DNA of 64,000 bases, taken from Enterovibrio norvegicus DSM 15893. Its GTDB lineage: Bacteria; Pseudomonadota; Gammaproteobacteria; Enterobacterales; Vibrionaceae. The notes under the pieces are model-generated. The model did no database searches and was not told the origin of the DNA. It saw nothing but the letters and a program-made list of their open reading frames with translations. Shown piece after piece: positions 28,504 to 37,994 of this stretch. Position 1 is the stretch's first letter; each line of letters starts with the position of its first letter. The position numbers and the translations under genes were made by a program. The stretch spans positions 1 through 64,000 of the forward strand of contig NZ_FOWR01000027.1 of NCBI RefSeq assembly GCF_900115495.1, in the 5' to 3' direction.

Positions 28504-28705
28504 TCAAACGACGAGTAAAGGATAAATAGAATAAGGCCGTAGTATAACCTCAAGCTTATCTGCGTTGCAGTTACACAATGTCGAAATTCACCGATGTTGA
28601 AGAAGGATTAACCGATATTCAGATTCCTTACAAAGCCGCATTCATTGCTTGTTGAAAGGCGCACTCGCCAGTAATATGAAACCGAATTTATGAGTGAGTC
28701 CTTGT

Positions 28706-29182
28706 ATGTGCAGTTTTTGGAATAAACAACGAAGTCTATTGGGCGTCTTGCTCAGTTTTCTGCTCGTCTGTTTTTCTGCTGGCGCATCCACCACTTTCGA
28801 ACGACAAACGGCAGTGTCGGATCTTTCGACCATGGTTTTGTCACCCCTGACTCACCACCAGCAAGATGCCACAGAATCACAAAACGATGCGCATCTGGAA
28901 CATCGCGCTCCTGCAAAATCCATTGCTCCCGGTTTATCATCCATTCTTCGAAATGGATCTTTCCTGCCCGAGCGATTACACAATACAGAACCAAGCTACG
29001 AACTCGTCTTTGATTTCGAACCTTCAAGCATTCCATCACGATTGCAATATGTGCACGTTTCTTCACGCCATTGGCACGATTGGACGTTAAGAGGCCCCCC
29101 TTCCTCTTTGCACCGTATTTCAGGATGGAAGGAATCCAATCTGCTCTATCGGTTTATCAGCCAAGCTGACACTGCGTCTTAA
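28706..29182 (+). CDS. vemP: VemP-like export-monitoring arrest peptide
   Basis: 158 residues: a hydrophobic signal sequence with a basic N-terminus (WNKQRSLLGVLLSFLLVCFSAGAS), a polar middle and a C-terminal tail with HRISGWKESNLLYRFISQ. Vibrio alginolyticus VemP is a secreted peptide of 159 residues encoded directly upstream of secD2F2. Its translation stalls at a glutamine close to the C-terminus unless Sec export pulls on it. The length, signal, position before secD2, and C-terminal motif ending in Q153 (five residues before the end) all fit. I recall the HRI.GWKE core from that protein but could not align it. A GTG at 28694 is an alternative start. Confidence 0.75.
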   Translation: MCSFWNKQRSLLGVLLSFLLVCFSAGASTTFERQTAVSDLSTMVLSPLTHHQQDATESQNDAHLEHRAPAKSIAPGLSSILRNGSFLPERLHNTEPSYELVFDFEPSSIPSRLQYVHVSSRHWHDWTLRGPPSSLHRISGWKESNLLYRFISQADTAS

Positions 29183-29194
29183 TTCTTATCATTT

Positions 29195-29341
29195 GAGCGT
29201 CTCGCTCACCGCTTTTGCACGTTTAAACAATCAGTCATACGCGAACTTATCGTATTGGCGGGTCTTTACGTGTCATGAATGAATACCAATCTGATTGGTA
29301 TAAGACAAAGTTGCTGGCCAATTGCCAGTGAGACGATTGCT
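29195..29341 (+). promoter_or_regulatory. vemP-secD2 intercistronic RNA switch (predicted)
   Basis: Bases 29198-29206 (CGTCTCGCT), 16 bases after the vemP stop, can pair in nine successive positions (one G-U) with 29327-29335 (AGTGAGACG), which includes the secD2 Shine-Dalgarno. Inside the enclosed loop are a 19-base near-unbroken palindrome (29283-29301) and a CTGGC/GCCAG hairpin (29314-29328). The first segment can also form a local hairpin GAGCG-TCT-CGCTC (29195-29207), so alternative folds are possible. Confidence 0.6.
29283..29301. repeat. 19-base palindrome ATACCAATCTGATTGGTAT
   Basis: Perfect 9-bp arms about a single central T, between vemP and secD2. It could be a hairpin of the intercistronic RNA or a dispersed intergenic palindrome; similar ACCAATC...GATTGGT units seem familiar from marine gammaproteobacteria, from memory only. 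Confidence 0.7.
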
Positions 29342-31156
29342 ATGCAGTTAAAACCTAAACGAAAGACCGTGCTGAATCATTATCCAGCATGGAAATACGT
29401 CGTCCTAGTTACGACCATCATCATTATGCTTCTGAGCGCCCTTCCTTCTTGGTTTGGTGAAGAGGCGGCCGTTTTCATCAAACATAAAGACAATGGCATC
29501 GCCCCTGTCACACTAAAACACCAATTGGATTCCCACAGCGTCGATATAAAACGCATTGACCAAAAAGGCAACAGCACGACAGTTGTGCTGCAAGATGCCG
29601 CCGATCAGAACAAAACCAAAGGTATCCTGACGGAGTTCTCGAACAAAGATGACATTGTCACACTAGGTATGGTGCCCGCCGCGCCAAGTTGGTTACTTGA
29701 AATGGGCTTTAAGCCCATCAAGCTCGGACTAGATTTACGCGGCGGAGTGCAGTTCCTGCTTGATGTGGATATGCAGCAAGTATTCCGCTCTCACGCCGAT
29801 CAAGCAGCAGATTCCGTCAAAGCTTTTGCCCGCGAAAACCGCATTCGTGGCTTGCGTGTTCACCAATCAAACGCCGATGGCTTTGTTGTGAATGCGCCTT
29901 CTGACGAGGCACAAAGTGCCGTTCGACAATACCTTCGTGAGCAATTCCCGCAGTGGGACGTGCAAGGGAAAGGTGACTTGGGCTTGTCAGTCAGTCTGAA
30001 AGAGGCAGAAAAACAAACCCTCACCAACCTGACTGTGCAGCAAAACCTGCAAACCATGCGCAGCCGCATCGAAGAATTGGGCATTACTGAAGCCGCCGTT
30101 CAACGTCAAGGTGAACACCGCATCCGCATTGAATTGCCAGGCGTTCAAGACCCAGCTGCGGCAAAAAATGTTATCGGCGCAACAGCAAGTTTGGCGTTCT
30201 ATGAAGTAAAAACATCACCAACACCGGGCTCAATGATGATCCCCGATGACAAAGGTGCCCCTGTTTACGTGAGCCGCAAGCCGATTCTTTCTGGCGAACA
30301 CATTGTGGATGCACGAGCAGGAATGGGCGAAATGGGCACACCTGAAGTGAACATTTCATTGGATGCCTCTGGCGGCAAAATGATGTCAGATTACTCAGCG
30401 AAGCACATTGGCGACCCGATGGGCACGGCGTATAGCGAATACAGCCGCGACAGCAAAGGCAATGTCGAGCAAACCAACACCATCATCAGCATTGCAACGA
30501 TTCAATCTCAGCTGGGTAACCGCTTCCGCATTACGGGTGTCGGCCAACTTGAAGAAGCTCAAGACTTAGCACTGTTGCTGCGCGCAGGCTCACTGACCGC
30601 GCCAGTCACCATCGTTGAAGAGCGCACCATTGGCCCTTCTTTGGGTGCTGAAAACATTCAAAACGGTTTCGCGGCGCTGGCGCTTGGCATGGGTTTGACC
30701 TTGCTGTTCATGGCGGTGTGGTATCGCAAACTGGGTTGGGTGGCGAACCTTGCGCTTCTCATCAACATGGTGATGTTGCTGGGTCTTATCGCGTTACTGC
30801 CAGGGGCGGTTCTGACGCTTCCAGGTATTGCAGGTCTCGTGCTCACCATCGGTATGGCCGTTGATACCAACGTGCTTATCTTCGAGCGAATAAAAGAGAA
30901 AATGCGTGAAGGAAGAAGCTTCGCGCAATCTATTGACCTTGGCTTTAGCAGTGCGTTTGCCACCATTTTGGACTCAAACATCACCACGCTAATTTCCGCC
31001 GCAACGTTATACGCAATCGGTAATGGCCCGATTCAGGGCTTCGCCCTCACATTGGGGCTAGGTCTTCTAACAAGCATGTTCACGGGTATTTTCGCTTCTC
31101 GCGCGGTGATTAACCTATTTTGGGGTAAAGATGCGCGCCGTGATGTGAGGGTATAA
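29342..31156 (+). CDS. secD2: Protein-export membrane protein SecD, second paralogue type
   Basis: A 604-residue SecD. With SecF it uses ion flow to help pull proteins out of the Sec channel on the periplasmic side. The first membrane segment is followed by the large periplasmic P1 domain (GLDLRGGVQFLLDVDMQQVF) and five C-terminal membrane segments. The ion-path aspartate is D508 in IGMAVDTNVLIFERIKE. Two SecDF pairs are known in marine vibrios. The VemP-like gene upstream marks this as SecDF2, reported to be Na-independent. The ATG at 29342 is chosen for its GTGAGA ribosome site; an ATG at 29279 would cover that site. Confidence 0.93.
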   Translation: MQLKPKRKTVLNHYPAWKYVVLVTTIIIMLLSALPSWFGEEAAVFIKHKDNGIAPVTLKHQLDSHSVDIKRIDQKGNSTTVVLQDAADQNKTKGILTEFSNKDDIVTLGMVPAAPSWLLEMGFKPIKLGLDLRGGVQFLLDVDMQQVFRSHADQAADSVKAFARENRIRGLRVHQSNADGFVVNAPSDEAQSAVRQYLREQFPQWDVQGKGDLGLSVSLKEAEKQTLTNLTVQQNLQTMRSRIEELGITEAAVQRQGEHRIRIELPGVQDPAAAKNVIGATASLAFYEVKTSPTPGSMMIPDDKGAPVYVSRKPILSGEHIVDARAGMGEMGTPEVNISLDASGGKMMSDYSAKHIGDPMGTAYSEYSRDSKGNVEQTNTIISIATIQSQLGNRFRITGVGQLEEAQDLALLLRAGSLTAPVTIVEERTIGPSLGAENIQNGFAALALGMGLTLLFMAVWYRKLGWVANLALLINMVMLLGLIALLPGAVLTLPGIAGLVLTIGMAVDTNVLIFERIKEKMREGRSFAQSIDLGFSSAFATILDSNITTLISAATLYAIGNGPIQGFALTLGLGLLTSMFTGIFASRAVINLFWGKDARRDVRV

Positions 31157-31158
31157 CC

Positions 31159-32055
31159 ATGATAACAATCAAAAACATGACCAAATGGCGCCATATCGGC
31201 ACCTTGCTTTCTTGTGTAGTGATGTTGATTTCCATTTTCACACTCGCGACGAAAGGCTTGAACTACGGGCTCGATTTCACGGGAGGAATGATCAGTGAAG
31301 TCAGACTGGACAAAACCCTGACAGCCAAAGAGATTCAATCCCACTTAGAAACCGCTTTGAACCAACCCGTGTCGGTGGTGGAAGCGGGAAACCCAGGTCA
31401 GTGGGTGCTTCGCTATGCCGCACCTGAGACGCTAAGCGATCAACCAGAAATCAAAACGCTACTCAATGGCTTTTCTGACAACGTTGAAATGCTCAACGTC
31501 AGTCTGGTTGGCCCTCAAGTAGGGCAAGAACTGGCAGAGCAAGGTGGCTTAGCGGTACTGATTACGCTGTTGGTAATACTTGGGTATTTGAGTATGCGCT
31601 TCGAATGGAGACTGGCGTCTGGCGCATTACTGGCCTTGGTTCATGACGTGGTGCTGCTGTTAGGCTTCTTCTCGGTCACAGGAATGGAGTTTAACCTCAC
31701 CGTGCTGGCGGCATTGCTAGCAGTATTAGGTTACTCACTCAATGACTCCATCATCATTTCAGACCGCATTCGCGAACTGTTAAAAGCCAATGTCAGCCTG
31801 CCGATTGCTGAATTGAACAACCGCGCCATTGTTTCTACCCTGTCGCGCACGTTGATCACATCTGGCACCACGCTGATTTCGGTGGGATCGCTGTGGTTGC
31901 TTGGGGGAGAGCCACTGTATGGATTCTCTATCACCATGTTCATCGGCATCGTTGCTGGCACATGGTCAACCATGACAGTTGCCACCATCATCCCTGAACT
32001 CACGCATCTTGGTCCTCAACACTACGCACCAGCACCAGTGTCTGACACACCATAG
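31159..32055 (+). CDS. secF2: Protein-export membrane protein SecF, second paralogue type
   Basis: A 298-residue SecF starting 2 bases after secD2. Its P1-like periplasmic start is GLNYGLDFTGGMISEVRLD. The membrane region holds the conserved aspartate D196 in GYSLNDSIIISDRIRE, and ISTLSRTLITSGTT-like VSTLSRTLITSGTTLISVGSLW. It forms the SecDF complex with the preceding gene. A strong terminator follows 30 bases later, closing the vemP-secD2-secF2 operon. Confidence 0.94.
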   Translation: MITIKNMTKWRHIGTLLSCVVMLISIFTLATKGLNYGLDFTGGMISEVRLDKTLTAKEIQSHLETALNQPVSVVEAGNPGQWVLRYAAPETLSDQPEIKTLLNGFSDNVEMLNVSLVGPQVGQELAEQGGLAVLITLLVILGYLSMRFEWRLASGALLALVHDVVLLLGFFSVTGMEFNLTVLAALLAVLGYSLNDSIIISDRIRELLKANVSLPIAELNNRAIVSTLSRTLITSGTTLISVGSLWLLGGEPLYGFSITMFIGIVAGTWSTMTVATIIPELTHLGPQHYAPAPVSDTP

Positions 32056-32247: not shown

Positions 32248-32649
32248 TTGCGACACATTAAACCCTACACAACATCGATCACACGCGCGCAGTGGGCACT
32301 TACCCTAGTTTGGTGGGTGGTGTTTGTGTGTTTGTCGCAAAACGCGGGCGCCTTCAATGCCTGCGGCATGAACCATGGCGTTGTAATAAATGAAGCCACG
32401 ACGTCAACGCAAAGTACCTCACTAACACCCAACAATGACACCACTGCAATGGCGAGTAGTTGCGAGCTTTCTGAAAAGCTGGTTCAGCTATCTTCGTCAT
32501 CGTGGGAATCGGCGACATTTACCATGTGGGTGTTTGCGTTCGCCATTATTGCTTGGCTGCTGTCGACATCCACATTTGTTCCAAAGCCCCCTGAACCCAT
32601 TCCTCCGCCCCGGCGATTACACCTCACGTTTTGCGTTTTTAGAGAATAA
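32248..32649 (+). CDS. Small membrane protein upstream of scsB (ScsA-like position)
   Basis: 133 residues. Two hydrophobic stretches are visible, WALTLVWWVVFVCLSQNAGAF (about 16-36) and FTMWVFAFAIIAWLLSTSTF (about 91-110). A short loop between has a Cys-Met-Asn-His group (ACGMNH), a second Cys and many Thr/Ser. The C-terminus PPPRRLHLTFCVFRE looks like a conserved tail. I do not recognise the family with certainty. It lies where scsA precedes scsB in Salmonella, and the Cys/Met/His content would suit a metal- or thiol-related membrane protein. The only start giving the full frame is a TTG, so the 5' end is uncertain. Confidence 0.55.
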   Translation: MRHIKPYTTSITRAQWALTLVWWVVFVCLSQNAGAFNACGMNHGVVINEATTSTQSTSLTPNNDTTAMASSCELSEKLVQLSSSSWESATFTMWVFAFAIIAWLLSTSTFVPKPPEPIPPPRRLHLTFCVFRE

Positions 32650-32713
32650 ACATATCAAACACTGGCACACGCTAGACGTTTTTATATTTGTTTTATTTTC
32701 TAGGAATACACCC

Positions 32714-34825
32714 ATGCACGTTCTAAACACACTCTCACGAAAGCTGGTCTTGCTCATCGTGAGTTTGAGCATCGCTTTATCCGCAGCTATGGCAGCACAA
32801 GCAGAGACCCCGTCAACAGGCTGGCTCACTAACCCCGCTCACCCTCCGCTTAGCACCCGTGTCGTGTTAACGGGCTCAACGAACTATGACGCCAATACCT
32901 TTGATGGCTTTTTAGAAGTCCAATTGAATGATGATTGGAAAACCTACTGGCGAACGCCAGGTGAAGGTGGCATTGCCCCCAGTTTTGACTGGCAAGCATC
33001 AGAAAACATAAAAGATATCACTTGGCACTGGCCTGCTCCTCAGCGCTTTGACCTTTTAGGTATTGATACCCTTGGTTACAAAGGGCACGTTATCTTTCCT
33101 CTCACGTTTACGGCAGAGAATATTCAGAAGCCTGTAAACATCAAAGGCAAGGTCACGGTATCGTCATGCACAACCGTGTGTGTACTCACCGACTACCCCA
33201 TTGATTTCACAGTAACACCGGCGGCCTTGAAAACTGACTCGCAGGCACTTCACTTATTCGCACAAGGCATGAGCAACGTGCCTCAGCCCTCGCCGCTCAT
33301 TGAAGCGCTTTCTGTCATTTGGGATGAAAATGCGCAGCTGGTAGAGATCACTGCGAAAAAAACGACGGGCTGGCAAACGCCGGATGTATTGATTGATGGA
33401 AGCACCGACGCGGTTCAGGACACTTTCTTTTCTGTTCCCAACATTCAAGTGACGGGAAACACCTTGCGCGCGCGCTTTGACGCAAGCAGTTGGATGGGAA
33501 AACCTGAGTTAAGCGATGAAACACTCAAAGTGACGTTTCTCGATGACAGCTTTATCGCAGAGCATGCATCAACAGCGAAAAGAGGCATCGCGACTTCGCC
33601 ATCTCAACCGTCATTTTTCACGGCCATCTTATTCGCCGTATTGGGCGGATTGATTTTGAATATCATGCCCTGCGTCCTGCCCGTCCTCGGCATGAAGCTC
33701 AGCAGCGTGATATCCGCACAAGGACTGGGAAAATCGCAGATCCGACGCCAATTCATTGCCTCTGCGATGGGAATTCTATTTTCGTTCTGGGTGATTGCTG
33801 CACTAATCAGCACCTTAAAGCTCACTGGACACGCATTTGGCTGGGGCATTCAATTTCAAAGCCCATTGTTCATCGGCGTGATGGTGGCGGTAACCGCTAT
33901 TTTTGCCGCCAACATGCTTGGCTTGTTTGAAATCCGCCTTCCCAGCACAGCAAATACGTGGCTTGCCAGCAAAGGGGATAACTCTTACGCCGGTCATTTC
34001 ACCCAAGGCATGTTTGCCACCTTATTGGCAACACCTTGTTCAGCACCTTTTTTGGGAACGGCTGTCGCGTTTGCCCTCACAACAAATTACCTCATGCTGT
34101 TTGTCATTTTCACCGCATTGGCGTTCGGCATGGCTATGCCTTGGTTGTTGGTTGCCGCTATGCCATCCATCGCCCAACGGTTACCCAAGCCCGGCCGTTG
34201 GATGAACAGACTCAAAGTCACCTTCGGTGTGATGATGCTTGCCACCAGCGTATGGCTAATGTCTCTACTGCAAAGCCATTTTTCTTTGGGTTGGGTAGCC
34301 ACTATCGTAGTCGTGGCGACAATGATTATTCTGTGGCGAACATCGTCAGTATACGGGCGAAAAACAACGATTATCGTCAGTGCGCTTGCCATGGTGTTGC
34401 TTGTCGTCGGTATAGTAACGGCAAGCTTAACAGCGTCTAAATGGGCCTCACCGCTACCCGCCGATCACACCTGGGAGAAACTTTCCTCCGCCCAAATCAG
34501 TCACCATGTCGCACAAGGTAAAATCGTCTTTGTTGATGTCACGGCAGATTGGTGTATCACCTGCAAAGCCAACAAGATCGGCGTATTGCTTCAAGAGCCG
34601 GTTTACAGTGCACTCAGCGGTCAGAACATCATTCGAATGCAGGGTGATTGGACGTCACCCAGTGATTCCGTCACACAGTACCTTCAACGTCACGGCAGAT
34701 ATGGCGTGCCCTTCAACATAGTTTATGGCCCCAATGCACCCAATGGGATCTCTCTACCTGTGATCCTTTCCAACGACGCCGTACTCAATGCCATCAAGCT
34801 CGCACAAGGAACGTCTTATGAGTGA
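32714..34825 (+). CDS. scsB: ScsB/DsbD-like thiol reductant transporter
   Basis: A 703-residue inner-membrane protein that should carry electrons from cytoplasmic thioredoxin to periplasmic thiol proteins. Signal peptide (LVLLIVSLSIALSAAMAAQA), N-terminal periplasmic domain with CTTVC, then about eight membrane segments with redox cysteines C320 (NIMPCVLPVLG) and C442 (TPCSAPFLG), and a C-terminal thioredoxin domain with C614-I-T-C617 (ADWCITC). The frame runs open upstream to 32435, but the ATG at 32714 begins the signal peptide. Its last 8 bases overlap the next gene (ATGAGTGA). Confidence 0.85.
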   Translation: MHVLNTLSRKLVLLIVSLSIALSAAMAAQAETPSTGWLTNPAHPPLSTRVVLTGSTNYDANTFDGFLEVQLNDDWKTYWRTPGEGGIAPSFDWQASENIKDITWHWPAPQRFDLLGIDTLGYKGHVIFPLTFTAENIQKPVNIKGKVTVSSCTTVCVLTDYPIDFTVTPAALKTDSQALHLFAQGMSNVPQPSPLIEALSVIWDENAQLVEITAKKTTGWQTPDVLIDGSTDAVQDTFFSVPNIQVTGNTLRARFDASSWMGKPELSDETLKVTFLDDSFIAEHASTAKRGIATSPSQPSFFTAILFAVLGGLILNIMPCVLPVLGMKLSSVISAQGLGKSQIRRQFIASAMGILFSFWVIAALISTLKLTGHAFGWGIQFQSPLFIGVMVAVTAIFAANMLGLFEIRLPSTANTWLASKGDNSYAGHFTQGMFATLLATPCSAPFLGTAVAFALTTNYLMLFVIFTALAFGMAMPWLLVAAMPSIAQRLPKPGRWMNRLKVTFGVMMLATSVWLMSLLQSHFSLGWVATIVVVATMIILWRTSSVYGRKTTIIVSALAMVLLVVGIVTASLTASKWASPLPADHTWEKLSSAQISHHVAQGKIVFVDVTADWCITCKANKIGVLLQEPVYSALSGQNIIRMQGDWTSPSDSVTQYLQRHGRYGVPFNIVYGPNAPNGISLPVILSNDAVLNAIKLAQGTSYE

Positions 34826-35354
34826 CAACACGCCACAGAAAATGGAACCCAAACGAAAATGGAAGAACCCCAAATGGTGGCTTAGAGAGTTTGCGACTTT
34901 AGTGGTTCTTTTCAGTGTGATGGCATTTGCGATGGATTGGTGGCGCACCCAAGACATGCCAAAAGGCGCAGTGCCAGCAATGCCAATGACGACAATATCC
35001 GGCTATGCTATCGACTTGGTCGCCCTCAGCCATGATGAGCCAGTTGTGCTGTATTTTTGGGCGACATGGTGTCCGGCCTGCAAATTTGTCACGCCAACTA
35101 TCAACTGGCTGTCTGATTCTTATCCCGTGGTATCTATTGCCATGACATCAGGCGACAACCGACGGATTAGCGCCTTTCTCAATAGTCATGACCTTCAGTT
35201 TGATACCGTCAACGACGAGAAAGGGACACTTGGACAAACCTGGGGCATTCAAGCCACACCTACCATCGTCATCATTAAAAATGGCAAGGTTGAATCTATA
35301 ACAACAGGCATTTCTACGCCGCTGGGTCTGCTGGCTCGCCTGTGGTTTTCCTAA
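34818..35354 (+). CDS. scsD: ScsD/TlpA-like membrane-anchored thioredoxin
   Basis: 178 residues. A positively charged N-terminus and one membrane anchor (REFATLVVLFSVMAFAMDWW, about 24-43) are followed by a periplasmic thioredoxin fold. The active site is W-C85-P-A-C88 and a cis-proline loop follows (QATPTIVI). The start overlaps the end of scsB, implying translational coupling. By analogy with Salmonella ScsD it would be reduced by ScsB and protect periplasmic thiols under copper or oxidative stress. Substrate specificity is not visible. Confidence 0.8.
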   Translation: MSDNTPQKMEPKRKWKNPKWWLREFATLVVLFSVMAFAMDWWRTQDMPKGAVPAMPMTTISGYAIDLVALSHDEPVVLYFWATWCPACKFVTPTINWLSDSYPVVSIAMTSGDNRRISAFLNSHDLQFDTVNDEKGTLGQTWGIQATPTIVIIKNGKVESITTGISTPLGLLARLWFS

Positions 35355-35373
35355 CAATTGATGAGTTAAAAAG

Positions 35374-36114
35374 ATGAAAAATACATTGTTTTCGCTCCTG
35401 TTGGTGATGATCGCCACCTTGACCTCTTTCAATGCAGTGTCAGAGACAGCGTTGAATAAAACGCAGCAACAGCAATTGAATGCCATCACTACGCTGCTTC
35501 AGCAAAACCCTGACATTATTCCAGGCTTACACCAAAGCCTGACGCAATACGTCGCGCAGCAACAAGGCTTCAAGGGCATACTCACCGCCAACCATGACTA
35601 CCTCTACAGCAACCCCAAACATACGCAGTTCGGCGCAACTGAACCCAAGCTCACCATCGTGAACTTTACCGACTACAACTGCCCTTTCTGCAAACGCCTC
35701 GATCCGGTTTTGCATGACATGGCCAAAACCTACCCAGACATAAAAGTGGTCAACATTTATGTGCCACTAAAAGAAATGGACGCCCCCTTGTCTGACATGA
35801 ATTCAGCGGCGTTTGCATTGAACGTATGGCAGCAGGCGCGTGATAAGTACTTTGAAGTTCACCAGTTACTCCTCACCAAGCCTAGCGCTCATGATCAACG
35901 CTCTTTTGCACGTATCGCTGATAAAACGGGGACGCGAGATCAACTAAAACAACACGATGCTACCGTCGAGATGGTTGAGAGAAACGTTTCTCTATTCCAG
36001 CAACTGGGCCTGCGCGGCACACCAGCCATGATCATTGGCGATGGTGTTCTACCAGGCTACTTACCCGCGGAGAAGCTTGCGCCGCTGATTGAGTCTGCTC
36101 TAGACAAACATTGA
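35374..36114 (+). CDS. scsC: ScsC/DsbG-like periplasmic thiol-disulfide protein
   Basis: 246 residues with a signal peptide (LFSLLLVMIATLTSFNAVS). A Gln-rich helical N-terminal segment (NKTQQQQLNAITTLLQQ) may mediate oligomerisation, as in trimeric ScsC of Proteus. The DsbA-type thioredoxin fold has active site C103-P-F-C106 (DYNCPFCKRL) and cis-proline loop LRGTPAMII. It probably acts as a disulfide isomerase or reductase kept reduced by ScsB. It follows scsD by 19 bases and ends the operon before a hairpin terminator. The order here is B-D-C, not B-C-D as in Salmonella. Confidence 0.82.
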   Translation: MKNTLFSLLLVMIATLTSFNAVSETALNKTQQQQLNAITTLLQQNPDIIPGLHQSLTQYVAQQQGFKGILTANHDYLYSNPKHTQFGATEPKLTIVNFTDYNCPFCKRLDPVLHDMAKTYPDIKVVNIYVPLKEMDAPLSDMNSAAFALNVWQQARDKYFEVHQLLLTKPSAHDQRSFARIADKTGTRDQLKQHDATVEMVERNVSLFQQLGLRGTPAMIIGDGVLPGYLPAEKLAPLIESALDKH

Positions 36115-36425: not shown

Positions 36426-37994
36426 ATGTTACGTACTCGATTACTCCCCTATATCGCGATGGTTTCTGCTGTTTCAGCAGCAATTCCGCACACGGTATCC
36501 GCACATGGGTATATGGATTATCCGCCCGCACGACAAGAAATCTGCGACAGTGATGGCGGCTTCTGGGATTCAGCAGACGGATCAACCATCCCCAACACAG
36601 CCTGTCGCGCTGCGTTCTGGGAATCCAGTTGGATACCCTTTATTCAAAAACATGAGTTCGCCAAGCTCGTCTCTGATTACACCAACCAAGCCGCCGTTGA
36701 AGAAGCCATACCAAGCGGCGCTCTGTGTTCTGGTGGCGATCCTGATAAAGCGGGTATTGATTTACCGTCTTCAGAATGGCAATCCACGCCCATCGACCCC
36801 GCCGCCAATGGCAAACTGACGCTGCTTTATCATGCCGACACGCCACACAACCCAAGTTTCTGGAAGATCTACTTATCAAACGCCAATTACAATCCGGCCT
36901 CGTCACCACTGGCTTGGTCTGATATTGATTTAATCGCTGAATTCGATGACTTGCCCGTTGTCGTGATCAACGAGAAAAAATACTACCAAATGCAAGTAAC
37001 CCTCCCGACAGATAGAACAGGCAATGCTGTACTCTTTTCACGCTGGCAACGCGTCGATGCGGCAGGGGAAGGTTTCTATAACTGCAGTGATCTCAACTTT
37101 GGCGGTGATATTGTTGCGCCAACATGGAACGACATCGGCAGTGCGATTAAATCCACCACGGATGCTTCTGCTGGCGACACCGTGTGGTTCCGCGTGTTTG
37201 ATGGTTCAGGTGCTGAAATGGTATTCGAAAAGCTACCAATAGACGCTAGCAATGACGCTGAAACAGTGTGGGGTGGGCAACTCGCTGACACAGTCAACAA
37301 CACATCATCAAGCGCACGTTTGGGTAAATTGGCAGAAGACGGCACAGTTGCTTGGGACAGCAGTGACCTCTATAGCAACTTGGTCTTTGTGAAAAACACC
37401 AACCACAGTTTCCAATTGGAAGTGAAAAAAGCCACCGTTAATTCTGCACCTGTTTTGTCAGCCCCTGCCTCAGTCTCTGTTGACAGCGGTCAGGATGTTC
37501 AATTCTCAGTGTCCGCTACGGATGCAGATAACGACCCTGTAGATTTCACCCTCTCGGCAGGTAGCTTCTCGATTCAAGGAAACACAGCCACTGTGACTTA
37601 TTCAGCCCCAGACACTCTTCAGGATCTGCGCCAGCAAATTCAAATTACAGCGACAGATGGTCAAGCAGCCGTATCAACGATCGTTGAAATTGCAGTAAAA
37701 GGCAGTGGTCCCGTAGGACAAACAGATTGGAGTGCCAATAACGTGTATCTGGCGGGAGATTCAGTAAACCATCTTGGTACGCAATACACCGCACTGTGGT
37801 GGACGAAAGGCGAAGAACCGGGCACATCCACAGTATGGTCGGCACAAGCAGATGGTAACAATCAAGCATGGAGCGAAGGGATTGCGTACTCAGCGGGTGA
37901 TATCGTGATGTTTGAGCGCGAAAATTATGAAGCGAAATGGTGGACGAAAGGCGATCTTCCATCAAACGGCGGGCCTTGGAAACGCGTGAAGTAA
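36426..37994 (+). CDS. AA10 lytic polysaccharide monooxygenase with two chitin-binding modules
   Basis: 522 residues, secreted. Signal peptidase cleavage after SA exposes the N-terminal histidine H27 (HGYMDYPPARQ) of the copper-binding histidine brace; the second histidine is probably H141 (PHNPSFWKIYL). The AA10 domain runs to about residue 225 (FYNCSDLNFGG). A linker domain without clear family follows, then an Ig/cadherin-like domain (about 340-430, PASVSVDSGQDVQFSVSATDADNDP). Two CBM5/12-type chitin-binding modules end the protein, each with a WWTKG motif (about 437-475 and 480-520). It oxidatively cleaves chitin or cellulose; the modules favour chitin. This layout differs from Vibrio GbpA. 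Confidence 0.9.
   Translation: MLRTRLLPYIAMVSAVSAAIPHTVSAHGYMDYPPARQEICDSDGGFWDSADGSTIPNTACRAAFWESSWIPFIQKHEFAKLVSDYTNQAAVEEAIPSGALCSGGDPDKAGIDLPSSEWQSTPIDPAANGKLTLLYHADTPHNPSFWKIYLSNANYNPASSPLAWSDIDLIAEFDDLPVVVINEKKYYQMQVTLPTDRTGNAVLFSRWQRVDAAGEGFYNCSDLNFGGDIVAPTWNDIGSAIKSTTDASAGDTVWFRVFDGSGAEMVFEKLPIDASNDAETVWGGQLADTVNNTSSSARLGKLAEDGTVAWDSSDLYSNLVFVKNTNHSFQLEVKKATVNSAPVLSAPASVSVDSGQDVQFSVSATDADNDPVDFTLSAGSFSIQGNTATVTYSAPDTLQDLRQQIQITATDGQAAVSTIVEIAVKGSGPVGQTDWSANNVYLAGDSVNHLGTQYTALWWTKGEEPGTSTVWSAQADGNNQAWSEGIAYSAGDIVMFERENYEAKWWTKGDLPSNGGPWKRVK

What the first reader, a model, noticed from the sequence alone, without database searches (positions are those of the whole stretch)
28706..31156. 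VemP-type force-sensing arrest peptide ahead of secD2-secF2
The 158-codon gene has a Sec signal, no known enzymatic domain, and a C-terminal HRISGWKESNLLYRFISQ ending five residues before the stop. Vibrio alginolyticus VemP (159 residues) sits directly before secDF2 and stalls at a C-terminal glutamine unless pulled by export. Length, signal, genomic position and the near-terminal glutamine agree. The homologue here sits in an unusual location (between ligA and zipA) and next to a thiol-redox operon.
Basis: partly seen in the sequence, partly recalled or inferred. Interest (0 to 1): 0.8.

Follow-up and report, generated by a model that had tools for sequence, protein, structure and literature searches.

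The report
Arrest-peptide switch controlling protein export genes
The gene encodes a secreted peptide that very probably jams its own ribosome when protein export is failing and so switches on a back-up export motor; relatives in other bacteria keep the jam motif, differ at its tip, and some sit before a different kind of membrane gene.

Summary
Window 28706-29182 (+) encodes a 158-residue secretory protein before secD2-secF2, ending HRISGWKESNLLYRFISQADTAS. It is the Enterovibrio member of the VemP family of export-monitoring arrest peptides: a family profile hits 274 of 329 Vibrionaceae genomes, nearly the same ones that have SecD2. The stall itself is not shown here.

One detail does not hold: Q153 lies five residues after the anchor tyrosine; V. 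alginolyticus Q156 lies six after it, and A154 aligns with it.

New points. (1) Over 159 distinct C-termini the anchor R-x-x-G-W-K-x-x-N-x-x-Y is kept, but the tip that reaches the peptidyl-transferase centre is lineage-specific; none is shorter than six residues. (2) The profile also hits nine families outside Vibrionaceae. (3) The motif ends peptides before DedA-family genes, among them yqjA-type genes and a second locus in this genome, where it usually reads RFIHSR-stop.

The mRNA latch over the secD2 ribosome-binding site has support in other lineages but is only suggestive here (p 0.13). Verdict: a VemP orthologue, new variant of a known kind.

The parts
28706..29182 (+). vemP orthologue, 158 codons plus stop (alternative GTG start at 28694)
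28706..28789 (+). N-terminal signal-like segment, residues 1-28 (judged by eye; no signal-peptide predictor was available)
28904..28912 (+). R67-A-P69, candidate for the (hydrophilic)-x-P element of VemP; P69 invariant in 14 of 14 aligned genus members
28934..28951 (+). short hydrophobic stretch L77-L81 followed by R82, candidate for the SHS-Arg85 element of VemP; R82 invariant in 14 of 14 (A1) and 15 of 15 (A2)
29114..29149 (+). arrest anchor R137-I-S-G-W141-K142-E-S-N145-L-L-Y148
29150..29179 (+). lineage-specific tip RFISQADTAS; predicted P-site codon at arrest 29165-29167 (A154), alternative 29162-29164 (Q153)
29175..29181 (+). candidate 5' arm of the mRNA latch, CGUCUUA
   Evidence: weak (p 0.11-0.25)
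29314..29328 (+). hairpin CUGGC-CAAUU-GCCAG directly before the ribosome-binding site
29329..29335 (+). candidate 3' arm of the latch UGAGACG, covering the ribosome-binding site of secD2
   Evidence: weak
29342..31156 (+). secD2 (conserved start; 604 aa)
31159..32055 (+). secF2

Best explanation
The gene is the Enterovibrio orthologue of VemP. The nascent secretory peptide arrests its own ribosome near its C-terminus: R137, W141, K142, N145 and Y148 anchor it in the exit tunnel and the RFISQA tip blocks the peptidyl-transferase centre with A154 (or Q153) in the P-site (inferred). Productive export pulls the arrest off (inferred from V. alginolyticus). When export is slow, the ribosome parked at the end of vemP keeps the mRNA there from pairing with the secD2 ribosome-binding site, so the back-up SecD2-SecF2 motor is made (inferred; the pairing is weakly supported here and better in relatives). 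Shown by sequence: orthology, operon, co-occurrence with SecD2, conservation of anchor and tip.
For: Anchor identical or similar to the V. alginolyticus arrest segment. Homologues in 15 of 18 genus genomes and profile hits in 274 of 329 family genomes. Of the 55 genomes without a hit, 51 have a single, SecD1-like SecD match (searches compared by eye); the three own-genus genomes without VemP have only SecD1-like hits. The RFISQ tip is kept at protein level with synonymous codon variation in 21 RF-type genes. No tip is shorter than six residues in 159 unique C-termini. In other lineages the mRNA in the footprint of a ribosome at Y+6 pairs with the next ribosome-binding site more often than control windows do: 18 of 103 against 5.3%. 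In the reduced genome of Ca. E. luxaltus vemP is broken inside the anchor while secD2 stays open.
Against: Pairwise similarity to V. alginolyticus VemP is weak (phmmer E 0.49). V. alginolyticus residues listed as needed beyond the anchor (A148, M149, V151, L153, N154; motif) are L, L, R, I, S here. The latch is not significant in the window (p 0.13; 0.11; 0.25), it reaches p<=0.05 in only 1 of 13 Enterovibrio/Grimontia pairs, and predicted accessibility does not change when the 5' part is removed (0.32 to 0.31). L140, whose peptide ends as V. alginolyticus VemP, did not pass the helix test either (p 0.43). No stall, export or expression data exist here.
Confidence: 0.88

Rival explanations
1. 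A VemP descendant that no longer arrests: the tip has diverged so far (RFISQA for VALNSQ) that the peptide is only a spacer ORF before secD2.
For: Changed residues at positions important in V. alginolyticus; weak latch in the window.
Against: RFISQ is held at protein level in 21 genes with synonymous changes; other lineages have RF[IL]-type tips too, and the dedA-type peptides end in RFI[HQ]-x-R-stop. A dead tip should drift.
Confidence: 0.07
2. A secreted protein with its own job outside the cytoplasm, co-transcribed with secD2-secF2; the C-terminal motif is a binding tail and not an arrest signal.
For: It has a signal-like N-terminus and conserved central stretches (EPxYELV) as well as the C-terminus.
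Against: The conserved C-terminus matches the tunnel-contacting residues of a solved stalled complex; no enzymatic or binding domain passes cut-off; related peptides precede unrelated membrane genes, which fits regulation in cis.
Confidence: 0.03

Closest known systems
Vibrio alginolyticus VemP (vemP-secD2F2), PDB 5nwy
   Same: Place before secD2-secF2, length (158 against 159), signal, anchor HRISGWKE-N--Y, candidate upstream elements (hydrophobic stretch plus Arg; x-P)
   Different: Tip RFISQADTAS for VALNSQFSA; the glutamine one position nearer the anchor; latch pairing different and weak; the thiol-redox genes and ligA next door
VemP-like cluster of PMC10987492 (339 sequences, consensus RxxxWKxxNxxY)
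   Same: The window's peptide fits the consensus and may already be a member (the supplement could not be read)
   Different: That work, in the passages and section I saw, searched only upstream of secA, secDF and yidC; the DedA-linked branch lies outside that search
SecM, MifM and the RQH / stop-codon arrest peptides (PMC7897499, PMC10987492)
   Same: Upstream ORF with a localisation signal and a C-terminal arrest sequence controlling the next gene
   Different: Unrelated arrest sequences (FxxxxWIxxxxGIRAGP; RAPP-like; DGMK-stop)

Membership tests
VemP family | Encoded directly upstream of secD2-secF2, same strand | tested here: met
VemP family | C-terminal motif RxxxWKxxNxxY (PMC10987492) | tested here: met
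VemP family | Homology over the arrest segment beyond pairwise level (profile) | tested here: met
VemP family | N-terminal Sec signal | tested here: inconclusive
   Hydrophobic N-terminus seen; no predictor was run
VemP family | V. alginolyticus residues beyond the anchor (VxLN at Y+1 to Y+4) | tested here: not met
   RFIS here. Lineage-variable within the family, so I do not treat it as defining
VemP family | Stem that hides the secD2 ribosome-binding site, opened by the stalled ribosome | tested here: inconclusive
VemP family | Translation arrest relieved by export | not testable with these tools
   needs in vitro translation and pulse-chase
SecM | Before secA, ending FxxxxWIxxxxGIRAGP | tested here: not met
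   the next gene is secD2 and the motif is absent (motif)
RQH family (RAPP-like) | R-A-P-P-like C-terminus before secDF | tested here: not met

The most novel reading that the evidence does not exclude
VemP is one branch of a large, modular family of force-sensing arrest peptides spread over the order. A tunnel anchor is joined to exchangeable tips, and the family controls not only the SecDF back-up motor but also DedA-family membrane proteins (yqjA-type in enterobacteria; in Vibrionaceae dedA, in some genomes followed by a RodA-like gene or a third secD). In the Vibrionaceae DedA branch the stop codon mostly stands right after Y+6, so arrest would happen with the stop codon in the A-site. The window's genome has both kinds, so one cell may run two such sensors.
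Probability: 0.55. Interest if true: 0.82.

Novelty: new variant of a known kind. Interest (0 to 1): 0.62.

Why it matters
In passages I read, VemP is called specifically conserved among Vibrio (PMC11470409) and found only in that genus (PMC8887479). The sequences here say that the tunnel anchor is widely kept while the part touching the catalytic centre has changed by lineage: a natural mutagenesis of how a nascent chain silences the ribosome. If the DedA-linked peptides also arrest, translation arrest would control membrane maintenance more widely than the Sec and YidC cases described so far.

Tried and rejected
Latch tests that led nowhere or only part of the way: folding the intergenic region of single sequences showed a V. 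alginolyticus-type change in several lineages but not in the window; RNAduplex energies against shuffles were uninformative; helix tests gave window p 0.25, 0.11 and 0.13. RNAalifold on all Enterovibrio/Grimontia together gave almost nothing; subclades gave subclade-specific pairings. Substitution counts between the window and its nearest relatives were too few in the C-terminus to use (0 and 0; 1 and 1). The promoter and terminator scan found no more than shuffles.

Considered and rejected: that E. coli yqiM, annotated before yqjA, is a remnant (27 residues, no motif). That the motif of the dedA-type peptides is chance: the profiles A2 and A5 each find the other's arrest segment in this genome (E 0.007; E 1.8e-4), and 28 of 30 fetched loci stand before a dedA-like ORF (several of the 30 are near-copies).

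Against a simple story of an invariant anchor: 22 of the 30 dedA-type loci pass a strict pattern, mostly with Q for K; four have H for K; three Grimontia ones have lost the anchor but keep RFIHSR; one (L330) was not resolved in frame. In V. alginolyticus only Arg or His can replace K144 (PMC8887479 passage), so the Q forms may differ in mechanism. Seven Photobacterium-like VemPs have H for Y.

Rows left out: the set of 219 loci omits L202, L204 and L205 (secD2 without a motif-bearing ORF), the named duplicates of the genus, the dedA-type loci (L302 onward), and the many Vibrionaceae hits that I did not fetch (I fetched the better-scoring ones); the pattern itself fixes W and N and limits R, K and Y. 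The tree leaves out the yqjA rows and rows with under 75 residues.

Not checkable: whether the 2024 VemP cluster already holds these genera (no supplement look-ups allowed); Mori 2018 is not held. No papers were listed for arrest peptide with DedA, yqjA with leader peptide or VemP with Photobacterium and ribosome; VemP with Shewanella and arrest listed one paper, on a globin nascent chain by its title. The library is open-licence PMC only.

Full report
What is there. Window 28706-29182 (+) is an ORF of 158 codons with a hydrophobic N-terminus and the C-terminus HRISGWKESNLLYRFISQADTAS. Nothing in Pfam or NCBIfam passes cut-off. secD2 and secF2 follow; the secD2 start kept among relatives is ATG 29342. 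The genome is Enterovibrio-like: the named loci closest in SecD2 are E. baiacu (99%) and E. calviensis (98%). It has a second SecD on another contig, 43% identical, with a SecF-like match beside it, so SecD2-SecF2 is a second set, as in Vibrio.

Is it VemP. phmmer against the PDB gives one weak hit, the VemP nascent chain (5nwy and four further entries), E 0.49, over HRISGWKE-N. The published V. alginolyticus segment, read in passages of PMC5449182, is HRISGWKETNAMYVALNSQFSA with Q156 in the P-site. Homologues are in 15 of 18 genomes of the genus. A profile of 15 diverse members (A2) hits 274 of 329 Vibrionaceae genomes at E <= 0.01, among them genomes whose peptide ends exactly as in V. alginolyticus (L140, L141). 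SecD2 passes its curated cut-off in 269 of 329. I compared the two lists by eye. Of the 55 genomes without a VemP hit, 51 have one SecD match, SecD1-like; G035 has one, SecD2-like; G096, G158 and G199 have two. On inspection G096 has a diverged VemP (LPRLGGWREHNLQYRFIHSR), G035 an ORF without the motif, and in G158 and G199 no ORF of 70 codons was seen in the stretch looked at. Some weak hits among the 274 may be chance; G022, for example, has one SecD and E 0.006. In the own genus the three genomes without VemP have only SecD1-like hits.

Correction of the finding. Counted from the anchor tyrosine, V. alginolyticus Q156 is Y+6; here Q153 is Y+5 and A154 is Y+6. Q153 is invariant in 21 of 21 RF-type genes, with A (16) or S (5) at Y+6. 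The NAR 2021 paper writes the last two residues of the VemP motif as unimportant (passage). Two facts favour Y+6 as P-site: no tip is shorter than six residues in 159 unique C-termini, and seven have exactly six; and in 20 of the 22 dedA-type peptides that pass a strict pattern the stop codon follows directly after Y+6. Against certainty: VALN-type tips have at least seven residues and RF-type tips at least six, which would also fit a stall one codon earlier in the RF type.

Anchor and tip. Of 219 fetched loci scanned, 218 carry the anchor; the miss is the broken gene of Ca. E. luxaltus (rows left out are named in Tried and rejected). Over 159 unique strings the anchor columns have 0 to 1.7 bits of entropy, the two columns before the tyrosine 2.3 and 1.8, and the eight columns after it 2.4 to 3.2. 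The search pattern fixes W and N and limits R, K and Y, so those columns are conditioned. Tips fall into lineage types: VALNSQF, RFISQA, TVYHHR, SHYGHS, SQRLYPH, SHFRELL, IPQQY, xxxxTYH and others. On a tree of about the first 130 residues of SecD2 (157 rows, 129 columns, weakly resolved) 16 tip classes need 20 changes, least possible 15, shuffled mean 99.7: tips change rarely and are then held. In V. alginolyticus N154 contacts U2506 and U2584 (PMC5449182 passages); it is S here.

Upstream elements. R82 after a short hydrophobic stretch, and R67-A-P69, resemble SHS-Arg85 and Q65-x-P67 of V. alginolyticus (PMC11470409 passages). The spacing differs (13 against 18 residues from P to R), so they are candidates only.

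mRNA latch. A helix test between 42 nt around and after the Y+6 codon and the 17 nt before the next start codon gave p <= 0.05 in 18 of 103 other Vibrionaceae pairs (5.3% of control windows), 8 of 24 yqjA pairs (2.9%), 1 of 20 other pairs of the order (5.6%) and 1 of 13 Enterovibrio/Grimontia pairs (4.8%); some pairs are near-copies. For the window CGUCUUA (29175-29181) can pair with UGAGACG (29329-29335); the same helix stands in the RNAalifold consensus of the four closest genomes, but p is 0.13, and predicted accessibility does not change when the 5' part is removed (0.32 to 0.31). L140, a V. alginolyticus-type locus, shows the change on folding (0.26 to 0.44) but not a significant helix (p 0.43). 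The latch is likely by analogy and not shown here.

Natural loss. Its dedA-type peptide holds six stops. Both fit a relaxed need for the sensors.

Beyond Vibrionaceae. A2 hits 85 of 394 genomes drawn from the order, 19 of 115 genera; 31 of the 85 are Vibrionaceae and the rest fall in nine other families. I fetched 40 of these 54: by eye 33 lie before a SecD-like ORF, four before a DedA gene, two before an S41-protease-like gene, and one showed no downstream ORF. In family f19 a profile of the four DedA-linked peptides (A4) hits 26 of 343 genomes, 12 of 154 genera; in 25 of 25 fetched loci the next ORF is the yqjA-type gene, 82-330 nt downstream. Its identity rests on 71% DNA identity to annotated E. 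coli yqjA over 40% of the query and on the VTT domain. hhalign of A2 against A4 gives probability 97, E 1.1e-10, over the C-terminal part (50 columns). E. coli has no such peptide before yqjA in the record looked at.

A second peptide in this genome. A2 finds one further place in the own genome, contig C27 (L314), E 0.007: an ORF ending DTDRLGGWQDANLQYRFIHSR, 139 nt before a DedA gene (VTT domain E 7.9e-20). A profile of such peptides (A5) has matches in 69 of 329 family genomes, some of which are only VemP arrest segments, among them the window's at E 1.8e-4. Of 30 fetched loci (some near-copies) 22 pass a strict pattern, 20 with a six-residue tip; four more have WH; three from Grimontia keep RFIHSR without the anchor; one is unresolved. 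In all, 28 of 30 stand before a dedA-like ORF, one before secD, one at a contig end. In three Enterovibrio genomes dedA is followed by a third secD. Several of these peptides have a second hydrophobic stretch close before the anchor, so membrane insertion rather than export may be what they sense; that is inference.

Literature. PMC11470409 and PMC8887479 (passages) restrict VemP to Vibrio; PMC10987492 (passages and section 6) describes 339 VemP-like sequences with RxxxWKxxNxxY and searched upstream of secA, secDF and yidC. Two searches listed no paper on arrest or leader peptides before DedA or yqjA genes.

Verdict. A VemP orthologue (0.88), by itself a member of a known kind. The new elements are the exchangeable tips, the spread and the DedA branch, all from sequence; arrest of these types is untested.

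Noticed in passing
L314 1195-1560 (own genome, contig C27:120207-120581): Second VemP-motif peptide of the window's genome, ending RLGGWQDANLQYRFIHSR, 139 nt before a DedA gene; a RodA-like ORF (by eye) lies further on.
   Followed up: partly
L277-L301, L256, L268, L274, L275: VemP-like peptides before yqjA-type DedA genes in 26 of 343 genomes of one enterobacterial family, with a frequent CCGGUGU:ACACCGG pairing between the peptide's stop and the yqjA start.
   Followed up: partly
L261, L266 (family f17): VemP-like peptide before a gene with a Peptidase_S41_N match, not a Sec gene.
   Followed up: no
L317, L318 (Photobacterium-like G060, G048): VemP-motif peptides directly before a RodA-like gene (named by eye).
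   Followed up: no
L044, L045, L051 (Pseudoalteromonas), ORF before secD2: Signal-bearing upstream ORF ending NCKPANLTFKGSLNFAS with a central YALVxEL stretch; perhaps a far-diverged VemP with C for W.
   Followed up: no
L027 / G001 (Ca. Enterovibrio luxaltus): vemP broken by an in-frame stop inside the anchor, secD2 open, dedA-type peptide decayed.
   Followed up: partly
window 32248-36114: DsbD-, thioredoxin- and DsbC-like genes (named by eye) after secF2; a DsbD-like match follows in 10 of 13 named Enterovibrio/Grimontia loci and in none of the 13 Vibrio/Photobacterium ones, within the flanks held.
   Followed up: partly
window 29283-29301: Near-perfect palindrome ATACCAATCTGATTGGTAT in the vemP-secD2 gap, varied in the nearest relatives and absent from Grimontia.
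   Followed up: no
window 36426-37994: 522-residue secreted protein that looks like a chitin-binding lytic monooxygenase (by eye), lying between the thiol-redox genes and zipA.
   Followed up: no
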